From Kalmusia sp. IMI 367209 (taxonomy: Eukaryota; Ascomycota; Dothideomycetes; Pleosporales; Didymosphaeriaceae): a stretch of DNA of 64,000 bases. This document shows positions 58,822 to 63,374 of this stretch, piece by piece. Each line of letters begins with the position of its first letter. The first letter of the stretch is position 1. Location: positions 2,108,001 through 2,172,000 of the forward strand of contig JAPEUQ010000005.1 of assembly GCA_027946365.1 (NCBI GenBank), written 5' to 3'. Position numbers and translations under genes: made by a program. The notes beneath the pieces are model-generated. The model was not told the DNA's origin. It did no database searches and was given only the letters and a program-made list of their open reading frames with translations.

Positions 58822-59418
58822 TAATAGGCACAACGGTCGGCGCCGAAATAAAAATGTCAGGGTGATGCTAGCCTTGTATGCACCTGTACACTCTCACATC
58901 TACCGACTGTGTCGGGGCCGACTCAAGCCGCTTCTACAGTCAGTCTGCCTTCTGGAATAACGGCCGTAGCGTTTATACCGCTCGTCGCAGACTGCTGACG
59001 CGACACTAGTTCCCAACTCAAGACCCGATTTCAAGAATTGTGGTCTAGAGCTTGGCTGGAGCTTAATTCCACATCCATCGTTCCAATCTGCGTAGCAGAT
59101 AAGCATGCGACGCTCCAATAAGATAGTCGTTATCTAACGTCAACGCGACGGTGTATTCGTCGCCCGTTAAGCGAACGGTTCTGTACTCCTGCACCTTCCT
59201 AGCTGGGTGGGGAAGGATCAGAGCCGAGTATAGTGCTCTACGGGTTTGTAGAGTTGGGCGAGGGCGGGGGCCAGGACCAACGTGTACTCCAGGAGGGGCG
59301 GAAATGGTCGGAGAGGTATATAAGAATGGTAGGCGTTGTAGGTAGCGGTAAAGGGTCGCAAAAGCAAATATCAGTCTGCTTGACAAGTTCACGAGCTACG
59401 GCTATTGTAACGTTCACT
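58822..59418. promoter_or_regulatory. Promoter of the repeat-peptide precursor gene
   Basis: About 600 bases between the permease stop and the precursor ATG. TATATAA at 59317-59323 lies 96 bp before the ATG. The frame on the minus strand at 59063-59392 is not supported. Confidence 0.5.
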
Positions 59419-59950
59419 ATGAAGTTCACTCAGATCGTCGCGGGCTTTGCCATGTTGGTCACTGCTCTTGCCGTTGCTATTCCTGTCGGTGGGTTGCAAG
59501 TCGTTTCTCGGAGAATCACTCTTTGTACTGATCCTTGATGAACATTAGACTGCGGCTTGAATCCTCACTCGAACTGCAAGAGGGTCGCTGTCCCTGAACC
59601 CGAGCCTGTCGGTACGTCGCGTTTACTCGACACGAATAAATTGAAACGCTAATGAAGGATGTGGATTAGACTGCGGTCCGAACCCTCACTCGAACTGCAA
59701 GAGAGAGCCTGTTCCCGAGCCTGTTCCCGAGCCTGAGCCTGTCGGTACGTCGTTTTCACTCTATACGGACCAATTGGAATGTTAATGTACCATGTGAATC
59801 AGACTGCGGTCCGAACCCTCACTCAAACTGCAAGCGAGTCGCCGTGCCCGAGCCAGCCGGTACGTCCTAGACCACGCCGACAGATGGGTCCAAATACTGA
59901 TGCTCAAAGCAAGTTTAGACTGCAACATCAGGTGGCACGAAGGTTGCTGA
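59419..59950 (+). CDS. Secreted repeat-peptide precursor with KR sites and duplicated exons (98 aa)
   Basis: Exons are 59419-59488, 59549-59611, 59670-59744, 59803-59859 and 59919-59950; introns are 58-60 nt. All introns are phase 1 and split an Asp codon, so each internal exon can be gained or lost without a frame change. Residues 1-20 are a signal peptide (MKFTQIVAGFAMLVTALAVA). Three units follow: DCGLNPHSNCKR at 24-35, DCGPNPHSNCKR at 45-56 and again at 70-81. Each KR is followed by a Pro-rich spacer (VAVPEPEPV, EPVPEPVPEPEPV, VAVPEPA). The last exon gives DCNIRWHEGC and stop. All four peptides have C-x7-C and a His five residues after the first Cys. KR is a Kex2-type site, and the spacers parse as X-Pro/X-Ala dipeptides. 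I infer release of small disulfide-loop peptides. Introns 2 and 3 are similar to each other, showing exon-intron duplication. No known family is recognised. Confidence 0.82.
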
Positions 59951-60291
59951 GCAATGATGTTCTCAGGCTAGATGGGGGGAATCGAAAGCATTGGGGACGG
60001 AGTTGTATGGCTGGGAGGCACCTTGCAAAAGAGAGGAGGCATGATTGGAGTTTGAACAAGGTTTCATTCATATTCGAAATTATAAATACAATTCACGTCC
60101 AAAAGAATATCTCGATCGCCTTTTTGAGACCTGGTAAGATGCGCGTGCTCAGGCTTGCTCCCACCCACGTGGTCGAGTTGTGGATTCCGGATCCGTCGTC
60201 GCTTCCTTCCTTGCTTCTCTTCTTCGTTGCGTCCCTCCGTCTGGGCTTTCTCCCCTAGGGTATCTTTGCTATTGCTGGTGTGTTGTGTCGC
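59951..60291. other. Convergent intergenic gap
   Basis: About 340 bases between the converging ends of the precursor and cupredoxin genes, probably their 3' untranslated regions. No further copy of the DC-x7-C unit is seen. Confidence 0.5.
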
Positions 60292-60919
60292 TTATAGGGC
60301 GAGGAAGGCGATCATGCCGAGAGCGGCAGTGAAGATGGCGCCGTTGCTTGCGCCAAGCATCGAGGCGCCGCTGTTATTTGTGGTGCCGTTCATCGTGGTG
60401 CCGTTCATGAGCATGCCGCCAACACCGGCAGTGGTGGTGGGCGAGGTGTTGTTGCTGGCATTAGCTGCTGCCTTGGCGAAAGCCTCGATGGTCTTCCCGC
60501 CGGACACACTTTGGCTCGTTAGCAATGAAGACGTCTGGAAATGTGGAGAATGCTTACGGAGGGGGGTTGATCACACCGACCATACCTTCCTGGCAGTGGT
60601 TGCCGCGGGAGCAGTAGAACCAGAGCGGTTGCGACTCGTTGGTGATGGTGATCATGTAGGTCATCGCTGCGGCGCCCTTCTCGCTGGGAATGAAACCGGA
60701 CCAGAAACCACCCTCCATTGGCTCGCAGGGTGATGCAAAAGCGGCCTGGGCGACGGAGTGGCTCTTGGGCCAGAACTTGAAGGTGACGGTGTCGTCCTTA
60801 GCAGCGGTAAAGTTCGAAGGCTCGAAAGTGAGAGTGCCATTTCCGACAACGACCAAATGGTCAGCCGCGAGAGCGGAGCCAGCAAGGGCGGCGGTAGCAG
60901 TGAAGAGTGAGAAACGCAT
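60292..60919 (-). CDS. Secreted cupredoxin-like, probably GPI-anchored protein (192 aa)
   Basis: Exon 1 is 60919-60558. A 49-nt intron (GTAAGC, GCTAAC, CAAAG) is followed by exon 2 at 60508-60292, phase 2. Residues 1-18 are a signal peptide. A plastocyanin/azurin-like fold follows, with candidate type-1 copper ligands H54, C103, H108 and M113 (WPKSHSV and FYCSRGNHCQEGM). A Ser/Thr/Asn-rich stretch and a hydrophobic C-terminus (AIFTAALGMIAFLAL) suggest a GPI signal, so it probably sits on the cell surface. Such proteins are common in fungal cell walls. Function is not established. Confidence 0.88.
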
Positions 60920-62850
60920 TATGATTGGATGTGAAGGAGAGAGACTAGCTCGTCTAGGTAATGAAGATAAAAATTAAGTGGGTTTGAAGAAGCGGATCGA
61001 GATAATTGGAGTCGAATGTATTGGAAAATGAAATCCTGGGCCTGCCTGAGGGAGGAAAGTCAAACCTGAGGGCATTTGAGGCCATTATATACGGCGTGGA
61101 TCGAAACACAGCGGCTGGGAAATGCATCTGGATGCTGCGAGACTGGTCGAGGAGAGGGTGACGGAACACCTCTGCGACTTCACGCGTCGCGGAGCCATGT
61201 AGTTCCAGCGCCTCACGTCTGTACCCGGAAGCCCAGCACGTACCGAAGCTTCGTGATTGGCGCAGTGTGCCACAGACGCTGTGTTATGCGCCACCGAGGC
61301 TTGACGAGACCCTGTGGTCTGGCTGAAGCACGAGCATGGCTGTTTGGTACGAGAACGCTACGGTAGAAAAGGCTTGTCTTTGGCGCCTTTTGGTGTTTCT
61401 GTGTAGGGGATGAAACTTGGGGAGCGCGGCTGCGAGGACATGAGACGGATTTGAGGCGGCGCACGGGCCCGTCGTCGGCGGACGCCCCCTCCGCTAAAGA
61501 AGAGCTTCGTGTGACAGGCCCGTCGACGGGCTATTGCGGATATCTGGGGTGCAGACGGGCCGAACGGCTGCTCAGAAGTTTCGAAGGGATGTTTCTTCAG
61601 TCTTGGAGTGCATCTGGGCCGCTGTCTGGCGGTTGGTCGACATATTGCGGTGAGGAGCGAATACTGCCGCAGAGCATCGACTCTTCCTCCCATCTTCCTT
61701 CAGCACGCCCTCCTCTACACGGTCCGTTCCTTCAGGCTTTCATCTTCGTTGATCGCAACATTTAGGCCATTGTTATGAGCACATGATCGCCATCCCGATG
61801 GAACCGCTCGCTGCGACGCGGCCACTTCCGAGCGCCTTTGCGGCTGTGCATCATCAGCTCGCACTGCGCATCGTCACGTCGACGGTCCCAACACAGGTAG
61901 GAGTGAGGCATCTTGACGGCGCTCGGAGTCGCGCTTTTTTTCAATGTCGCTCAGAAGTTGCCGCAACCGATAAATTCAGAAAACGTGTCTTCGGCGGTCA
62001 AGCTGGAAGTGCTACTGCTGTGCAATGGAATCAAAACCTGCGAACCACGGGTTGCGCAACTATCGAAACCAGGCCAATGTTTCCCTGGCCACCAATGCTA
62101 TTGCTGAAAATGCATCAGTTGATGACTGCAGCTTTGGTACTGGAACACGGCCACTATGAACGCCCGTATATTTTTCCGATGAGATCCACATGCTACCCTG
62201 ACCGTGCTGTATTGACAATTCATCTGTCTCAATGCAAGCCCCCGTTATGACCTACAACGGTGCTAGATGCTGGGCAGCAATTATTGATCGCTGTCACAGA
62301 TTGCCCGTTGAGGCTCCGCACGATGTAACCGGCCACTAGCTTCGGGCGATTTCCTCGCTTTTATCCACCTAAAAGCATGACAGGCTGGCTGGTCCCGGTA
62401 CATCAGGCCAAAAATAATCACGAGTATGACCGCCGTCTCTGGCACCGCTCCGAGAGCTATGAGCGCACCTACATTCTTTAGCTTCCGAATGCCACTAAAT
62501 GGTCACCTGCACCGCCCACATTCCTACTTTCGGGTTGGTTCCAGCGAAGCAACCCTCGATCGCCATGGTACGCCTCGCTAATGCGCCAAATGATCCAATA
62601 TTCGTTGTCGCCGTCGCTGTGGGAACGTATAAGCTATGATGTAGAGGTCAGGAATGCGCAAGCTATGATGCAAAGACGAGGACCTGAGTATGAAGTCTGT
62701 CTATAAAGCAGTCGACATTGTCGAGCAGAAGAATTCATCATCTTACAGCTCAACCCATTCCACAGCACTTCCAACAACAAAAACACTTCCGCTTTACAAT
62801 TCACACAAAGGTTTCCTGAACATTCCACGATCCACATCTCAACAAACACC
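60920..62850. other. Long divergent intergenic region of two secreted-protein genes
   Basis: About 1.9 kb between the cupredoxin and cerato-platanin genes. TATATA occurs near 61085, about 165 bp upstream of the cupredoxin ATG. TATAAAG at 62702-62708 is about 145 bp upstream of the cerato-platanin ATG. A direct repeat AAGCTATGATG lies at 62631-62641 and 62660-62670. The frames at 61076-62250 are not supported. Confidence 0.45.
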
Positions 62851-63374
62851 ATGAAGTTCTCCACTGCCGTTTCCGCCGCCGTTGTCGGGTTTGCTTCGCT
62901 CACCTCCGCCATCACTGGTCAGTCCACCTCCACATGGTCTCTGGTGCTGCTGTTAACCACAATATAGTGTCATACGATACCGGATACGATGATGCAAGCC
63001 GCTCTATGACGGCCGTTTCCTGCTCCGATGGAACAAACGGTCTGATCACCAAGTACGGCTGGCAGACGCAAGGAAACATCAAGACTCCCTACTTTGGTGG
63101 TTACCAAGGCGTTGCGGGATGGAACTCCCCTCAGGTACGACTCGCATTTGTGTCATTCCATTGCAACTACTAACGGCATCTCTTGTAGTGCGGAACTTGC
63201 TACAGCTTGACCTACAACGGCAAGACCATCTACGTCCTCGCCATCGATCACACAGCTGCAGGCTTCAACATCAACAAGAAGGGCCTCGATGCCCTAACCA
63301 ACAACCAAGCCACTCAGCTTGGACGCGTCGACGCTACCTACTCCCAGGTCGCACTCAGCAACTGCGGTCTATAG
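62851..63374 (+). CDS. Cerato-platanin family secreted protein (139 aa)
   Basis: Exons are 62851-62917, 62968-63134 and 63189-63374. The introns are 50 and 54 nt, phases agree. Residues 1 to about 20 are a signal peptide ([20 protein letters not shown]). The mature part has the family start VSYDTGYDD and four cysteines placed for two disulfides (VSCSDG, CGTC, SNCGL at the end). The double-psi beta-barrel segments [16 protein letters not shown] and [20 protein letters not shown] are also present. Cerato-platanins are small surface-active, chitin-related proteins of fungal walls that plants can recognise as elicitors. Length is normal for the family. Confidence 0.93.

What the first reader, a model, noticed from the sequence alone, without database searches (positions are those of the whole stretch)
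59419..59950. A secreted precursor made of duplicated symmetric exons, predicted to release four Cys-x7-Cys peptides
Seen: signal peptide, three near-identical DCG[LP]NPHSNC units each followed by KR, then a divergent DCNIRWHEGC ended by the stop codon, so it needs no KR. All introns are phase 1. Established: Kex2 cuts after KR, Kex1 trims C-terminal basic residues, and Ste13-type peptidases remove X-Pro/X-Ala dipeptides. Inference: the segment before every unit divides cleanly into such dipeptides. After signal cleavage at AVA it is IP, then VA-VP-EP-EP, then EP-VP-EP-VP-EP-EP, then VA-VP-EP. That leaves 11-residue peptides starting with V (three) or A (one). This is alpha-factor-like maturation of a peptide that does not match the WCxxxGQxC alpha-pheromones. 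It could be a signalling peptide or other small secreted cyclic peptide of an undescribed family.
Basis: partly seen in the sequence, partly recalled or inferred. Interest (0 to 1): 0.88.

Follow-up and report, generated by a model that had tools for sequence, protein, structure and literature searches.

The report
Alpha-factor-like secreted fungal peptide precursor
A mould gene encodes a small secreted protein built from repeated exons that should be cut into four tiny disulfide-ring peptides in the way yeast makes its mating hormone, but the peptides do not look like a known mating hormone, so it may be an extra chemical signal of this group of fungi.

Summary
Five exons and four phase-1 introns (59419-59950) give a 98-aa precursor: leader, three DCG[LP]NPHSNC-KR units, terminal DCNIRWHEGC. 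Relatives in Paraphaeosphaeria sporulosa and P. minitans, the only two found, keep leader, C-x7-C cores, KR sites and X-Pro/X-Ala spacers; P. minitans also keeps the last unit. The genome has Kex2-type and Ste13-type candidates. It has two other alpha-factor-like precursors, C23 (8 x NCRFPGQPC) and C29 (2 x WHS[DG]FRKFPGQPIS), and one STE2 gene was found. So this is a third alpha-factor-like precursor; its cores lack the GQ/PG turn of most alpha-pheromones. UstYa matches lie over 330 kb away and the protein has no tyrosine, against a dikaritin. However, a tyrosine-rich, probably dikaritin, precursor here also has X-Ala/X-Pro spacers, so the spacers alone do not prove a signal. Best reading: a Kex2/Ste13-processed secreted peptide signal, perhaps a recast pheromone-precursor copy, receptor unknown; a new variant of a known kind (KEPs).

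The parts
59317..59323 (+). TATA-box-like TATATAA, about 100 nt upstream of the ATG
   Evidence: sequence; pattern position; function not shown
59419..59488 (+). exon 1: ATG, signal peptide MKFTQIVAGFAMLVTALAVA, then IPV and first base of the Asp codon
   Evidence: leader conserved in P0001 and P0002
59489..59548 (+). intron 1, phase 1
59549..59611 (+). exon 2 (63 nt cassette): DCGLNPHSNC-KR then VAVPEPEPV
59612..59669 (+). intron 2, phase 1
59670..59744 (+). exon 3 (75 nt cassette): DCGPNPHSNC-KR then EPVPEPVPEPEPV
59745..59802 (+). intron 3, phase 1; 72% identical to intron 2
59803..59859 (+). exon 4 (57 nt cassette): DCGPNPHSNC-KR then VAVPEPA
59860..59918 (+). intron 4, phase 1
59919..59950 (+). 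exon 5: terminal unit DCNIRWHEGC and stop codon
   Evidence: P. minitans P0002 ends DCNVTWHEGC

Best explanation
[not shown]
For: Spliced frame. Relatives P0001 (E 6.4e-42) and P0002 (E 4.1e-25). 9 of 12 positions of the DCGxNPHxxCKR unit are identical in 8 of 8 such units from three species. Dipeptide register in 10 of 10 complete spacers. Nucleotide differences among the window's three DCG units are mostly silent: 3 silent to 2 replacing, 5 to 2, and 2 to 0 in the three pairs. One proprotein-convertase gene on C11 with the three S8 motifs DDG, HGTRCAG, GTSAAGP. One DPP with an N-terminal TM-like stretch (Ste13/DapB-like, C11) and one with a leader-like N-terminus (C23). The canonical precursor on C23 has the same layout: first core directly after a VAIP leader, KR, X-A/X-P spacers, last core ended by the stop. 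Its leader is the best match to the window's leader among the 29 other MKFT-start loci read (score 49; next best 32).
Against: No expression or peptide data. Only two relatives, from one genus, and the P. sporulosa protein as annotated lacks the DCN unit. 0 of 4 window cores has GQ or PG. The X-A/X-P spacers also occur in a tyrosine-rich repeat precursor next to a UstYa match, so they do not single out signals. The promoter shares no word above background with the C23 pheromone promoter and lacks its TGAAACA and CTTTGT motifs, so nothing points to mating-type regulation. Leader similarity was tested only among loci chosen for MKFT; just 6 of the other 28 have a clearly hydrophobic leader (mean KD above 1), and seen from the C23 leader two of those score 43 against 49 for the window. 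The post-leader part alone is reached by 425 of 5000 shuffles. No second STE2 match was found.
Confidence: 0.57

Rival explanations
1. The peptides act outward, as small antimicrobial or host-directed secreted peptides (competition, mycoparasitism or plant interaction), and only borrow the Kex2/Ste13 maturation route.
For: KEPs include mycotoxins and candidate effectors (PMC6339444 abstract); one relative is in P. minitans, a mycoparasite from recall; X-A/X-P spacers also occur in a non-pheromone-like repeat precursor of this genome; cerato-platanin and cupredoxin genes lie downstream.
Against: Dipeptide spacers are, in PMC6339444 (section 8), generally a mark of alpha-pheromones in Ascomycota; cores are not cationic by inspection; the neighbours are common kinds of secreted protein (recall) and need not be linked.
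Confidence: 0.27
2. It is a second true mating pheromone: a diverged alpha-factor read by the single Ste2 together with, or instead of, the canonical C23 and C29 peptides.
For: Same precursor layout and best-matching leader; one STE2 gene found; the assembly carries MAT1-1-1; RWHEG in the last unit resembles RWHS[DG] of the C29 peptide (weak, not tested against chance).
Against: No GQ/PG turn; C-x7-C instead of C-x6-C; two better alpha-factor candidates in the genome; no shared promoter motif.
Confidence: 0.12
3. A dikaritin-type RiPP precursor whose cores are cyclised by UstYa-type enzymes.
For: KR-separated repeats; the genome has 102 UstYa matches; a tyrosine-rich repeat precursor on C30 also has X-A/X-P spacers.
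Against: No UstYa match within 330 kb (nearest on C26: 1827689-1828114 and 2539896-2540345; an exon-by-exon search that can miss short pieces); no tyrosine in the protein. The C30 precursor (repeated ATYAPL[VY]YTGGLK) lies 1.4 kb from a UstYa match, which shows what such a gene would look like here.
Confidence: 0.04
4. An uncut secreted proline-rich protein (wall or matrix) in which KR sites are incidental.
For: PEP-rich spacers; the only Pfam match is a sub-cut-off low-complexity one (Trypan_PARP, 18.8 bits against 100).
Against: KR kept after 8 of 8 DCG units in three species and absent only where the stop ends the last peptide; even-length dipeptide spacers.
Confidence: 0.05

Closest known systems
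KEX2-processed repeat proteins (KEPs) with STE13 signature (Le Marquer 2019, PMC6339444; Umemura 2020, PMC7329392)
   Same: Secreted precursor, repeated cores separated by KR, X-A/X-P dipeptides after the cut
   Different: Core sequence not found in the texts searched (supplements not open to me); cores on separate symmetric phase-1 exons; a second, single-copy peptide type at the end
Ascomycete alpha-type mating pheromone precursors (ppg1/ccg-4 type), here the C23 gene of the same genome
   Same: Leader, first core directly after it, Kex2 and Ste13 spacers, two Cys per peptide, last core ended by the stop
   Different: C-x7-C, not C-x6-C; no GQ/PG turn; five exons against one open frame; no detectable core homology
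Dikaritin RiPP precursors (ustiloxin, phomopsin type); likely local example on C30
   Same: KR-separated repeats in a secreted precursor; the C30 gene also has X-A/X-P spacers
   Different: No UstYa match nearby, no tyrosine, two Cys per core

Membership tests
KEP (definition in PMC6339444, section 24) | signal peptide | tested here: inconclusive
   hydrophobic stretch 5-20, mean KD 2.11, and conserved leader; SignalP not available
KEP (definition in PMC6339444, section 24) | at least four KR/RR/KK fragments, at least three alike, repeats at least 15% of length | tested here: met
   4 fragments, 3 alike, about 37% of 98 aa, by hand; the P. minitans relative has only 2 alike and would miss the threshold
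KEP (definition in PMC6339444, section 24) | a Kex2-type protease to cut it | tested here: met
   one P_proprotein match, E 6.2e-28, in a frame with the three S8 motifs; cutting itself not shown
Ascomycete alpha-type mating pheromone precursor | repeats of 9-14 aa preceded by STE13 sites and followed by KEX sites (PMC10569646 passages) | tested here: met
   the last unit is ended by the stop instead of a KEX site
Ascomycete alpha-type mating pheromone precursor | GQ or PG turn in the mature repeat (the vast majority in Leotiomycetes, PMC10569646 passages) | tested here: not met
   0 of 4 window cores, and none in the cores of P0001 and P0002 by eye
Ascomycete alpha-type mating pheromone precursor | sequence homology to known precursors | tested here: inconclusive
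   protein searches found only two hypothetical proteins; weak own-genome match to the C23 precursor, E 0.014, carried by the leader; the reverse search from C23 did not list the window locus
Ascomycete alpha-type mating pheromone precursor | activates Ste2; mating-type-dependent expression | not testable with these tools
   no expression or receptor assay
Dikaritin RiPP precursor | UstYa (DUF3328) gene close by | tested here: not met
   nearest of 102 matches is more than 330 kb away
Dikaritin RiPP precursor | tyrosine-containing core | tested here: not met
   0 Y in the 98 aa

The most novel reading that the evidence does not exclude
A third peptide-signalling channel in a filamentous fungus: besides two alpha-factor classes (Cys type and yeast-like WH..PGQP type), a pheromone-precursor copy has been recast as cassette exons that deliver two different disulfide-ring hormones in about 3:1 ratio. 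Exon skipping could change the ratio without breaking the frame, and the peptides would be read by Ste2 in a second mode or by an unknown receptor for a non-mating process.
Probability: 0.2. Interest if true: 0.75.

Novelty: new variant of a known kind. Interest (0 to 1): 0.5.

Why it matters
The roles of KEP peptides are largely unknown (PMC9769878, abstract in a listing). Here one genome offers three alpha-factor-like precursors and one STE2 gene, with predicted products defined to the residue, so synthetic peptides and yeast receptor assays can ask directly whether alpha-factor-type maturation serves signals other than mating. The symmetric exon cassettes also suggest how peptide copy number and ratio could evolve or be regulated by splicing.

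Tried and rejected
WCxxxG[QE]xC search of the genome: 11 hits against 9 with the reversed control. 8 of the 11 had loci. One search read 5 of these on the right strand and 3 on the wrong one; the 3 were reread. None of the 8 sits in an evident repeat precursor with KR sites; the other 3 hits were not read. The canonical precursor was found instead through protein search. A search for another DCN..WHEGC: 5 hits, the window exactly and 4 others at 3 mismatches, against 6 in the control. A profile search for more relatives: none beyond the same two. Promoter words shared with the C23 gene: at background. Pfam on the window protein: only a low-complexity sub-cut-off match. Literature searches for the peptide letters or locus tags: 7 listed papers, all unrelated by title; for C23/C29-type and Pleosporales pheromone letters, 0 papers; for cassette-exon Kex2 precursors, nothing relevant in the listings. 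Supplementary tables of the KEP surveys could not be opened, so I cannot say whether the P. sporulosa protein is already listed there. Considered and dropped: prokaryotic and viral contig scans (a fungal gene), and folding a 98-aa multi-peptide precursor. Also dropped: the long overlapping frame 59737-60258 (+), because relatives support the spliced frame.

Full report
Observation. The spliced gene at 59419-59950 is real at the sequence level. Five exons give MKFTQIVAGFAMLVTALAVAIPVDCGLNPHSNCKRVAVPEPEPVDCGPNPHSNCKREPVPEPVPEPEPVDCGPNPHSNCKRVAVPEPADCNIRWHEGC. All four introns are 58-60 nt, phase 1, with fungal-type donor, branch point and acceptor; keeping any of them brings a stop, and each of five tested exon skips stays in frame. 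Introns 2 and 3 are related (72% identical, beyond all 300 shuffles); the other five pairs are not.

Relatives. In a search of about 5.8 billion proteins, 2 of 142 candidates passed E 10: P. sporulosa PSPO01_12855 (E 6.4e-42) and P. minitans PMIN06_007256 (E 4.1e-25). A profile of all three found the same two among 4064 candidates. P. minitans has two DCG units and ends DCNVTWHEGC. The P. sporulosa model has three DCG units but a C-terminus without DCN, which may be a gene-model error or a real loss. So the last unit is seen in two of three species. Nine of 12 positions of the DCG unit are invariant in 8 of 8 units. Spacers follow (X-[PA])n in 10 of 10 complete cases, 34 of 34 dipeptides; the eleventh, at the P. 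sporulosa end, was not counted.

Genome context. The window is C26:2108001-2172000 of a 42.8 Mb assembly without name. The closest relatives are in Didymosphaeriaceae, Pleosporales. The only own-genome match to the precursor outside the locus is at C23:792981-793643, best E 0.014. That is a canonical alpha-pheromone-type precursor: 8 NCRFPGQPC cores plus one WHSGHRTFPGQPIS. Its hits (18 at E 0.1 or better) include Paraconiothyrium brasiliense, Karstenula rhodostoma and proteins named clock-controlled pheromone. Searching the genome with it found a further precursor at C29:2028057 with 2 x WHS[DG]FRKFPGQPIS; the window locus was not among those hits at E 1. There is one STE2 (two adjacent fragments), one STE3 (two fragments) and MAT1-1-1; MAT1-2-1 was not sought. 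One P_proprotein gene has the three S8 motifs. Of 3 DPPIV_N matches, one has a TM-like N-terminus, one a leader-like N-terminus and one is weak. Kex1 was not searched.

Relation to the pheromone gene. Of 30 MKFT-start loci read (of 42 hits), two being the window and C23, the C23 leader is the best match to the window leader, 49 against at most 32 for the other 28, of which 6 have a clearly hydrophobic leader. Seen from the C23 leader the margin is smaller: 49 against 43 for two others. The N-terminal 36 residues beat 5000 of 5000 block shuffles, but the part after the leader alone is reached by 425 of 5000. So the leader may share ancestry while the cores show none. Promoters share nothing beyond background, and only the C23 promoter has TGAAACA and CTTTGT. 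Paralogy is an inference, not shown.

Mechanism. From knowledge of alpha-factor maturation (PMC6339444, sections 8, 10 and 24 and passages; PMC10569646, passages), Kex2, a Kex1-type carboxypeptidase and a Ste13-type dipeptidase would release three ZDCG[LP]NPHSNC and one ADCNIRWHEGC. The dipeptidase would stop at Z-Asp since Asp is neither Pro nor Ala. A leader cut after ALA instead of AVA would leave VA-IP-V and the same result. Disulfide closure is inferred from the paired Cys. What the peptides do is inferred. A secreted signal is favoured by the likeness to the pheromone precursor and because PMC6339444 (section 8) holds the dipeptide signature to be generally dedicated to alpha-pheromones in Ascomycota. 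Against this, the same paper reports such signatures in other fungi, and the C30 repeat precursor of this genome has X-A/X-P spacers with tyrosine cores beside a UstYa match. An outward-acting peptide therefore remains a serious rival.

Against a dikaritin. 102 UstYa matches were found, none within 330 kb of the locus, and the protein has no tyrosine. The C30 precursor at 1363465-1363728 sits 1.4 kb from a UstYa match.

Novelty. KEPs are a described kind; PMC7329392 (passages) says most are unique at least at genus level, so a genus-restricted member is expected. In PMC6339444 (section 24) 1114 of 1193 KEPs release one motif type. Less usual here are a second peptide at the end kept in two species, the phase-1 cassette exons, and a third alpha-factor-like precursor beside two pheromone-type ones. 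I found none of this in print in ten searches, which cover open-licence papers only and no supplements. Of the papers listed I opened four, in part: PMC6339444, PMC7329392, PMC10569646 and PMC6265332 (passages only).

Noticed in passing
L007:1501-2190 (C23:792981-793670); P0003; P0004: Alpha-pheromone-type precursors of this group carry two peptide types in one protein: Cys type NCRFPG[QM]PC and a W[HQ]SG..[LF]PGQPI[GS] type that (from recall) resembles baker's-yeast alpha-factor. This may link the two Dothideomycete pheromone classes of PMC6339444.
   Followed up: partly
L070:1471-1779 (C29:2028027-2028335): Separate pheromone-type precursor with only the W type (2 x RWHS[DG]FRKFPGQPIS); one STE2 gene found for two or three ligand classes.
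   Followed up: partly
L072:1453-1866 (C30, minus strand): Likely dikaritin precursor with repeated ATYAPL[VY]YTGGLK, 1.4 kb from a UstYa match, and with X-A/X-P dipeptide spacers in at least two of its four repeat gaps.
   Followed up: partly
whole genome G000: 102 UstYa/DUF3328 matches (pieces of one gene counted apart), which suggests many RiPP-type or related oxidase genes.
   Followed up: no
window 60554-60973 (-) and 62820-63170 (+): Secreted cupredoxin-like gene and a cerato-platanin gene downstream of the precursor.
   Followed up: no
L038:7873-9906 (-): Long ORF with about 18-residue tandem repeats (GGQGSSQGDFKYPLHEQV) close to MAT1-1-1.
   Followed up: no
L007:1501-2187: The C23 pheromone precursor matches Pfam Toxin_29 (39.7 bits, cut-off 25) with no single stretch passing; it looks like a spurious match to short Cys repeats.
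   Followed up: no
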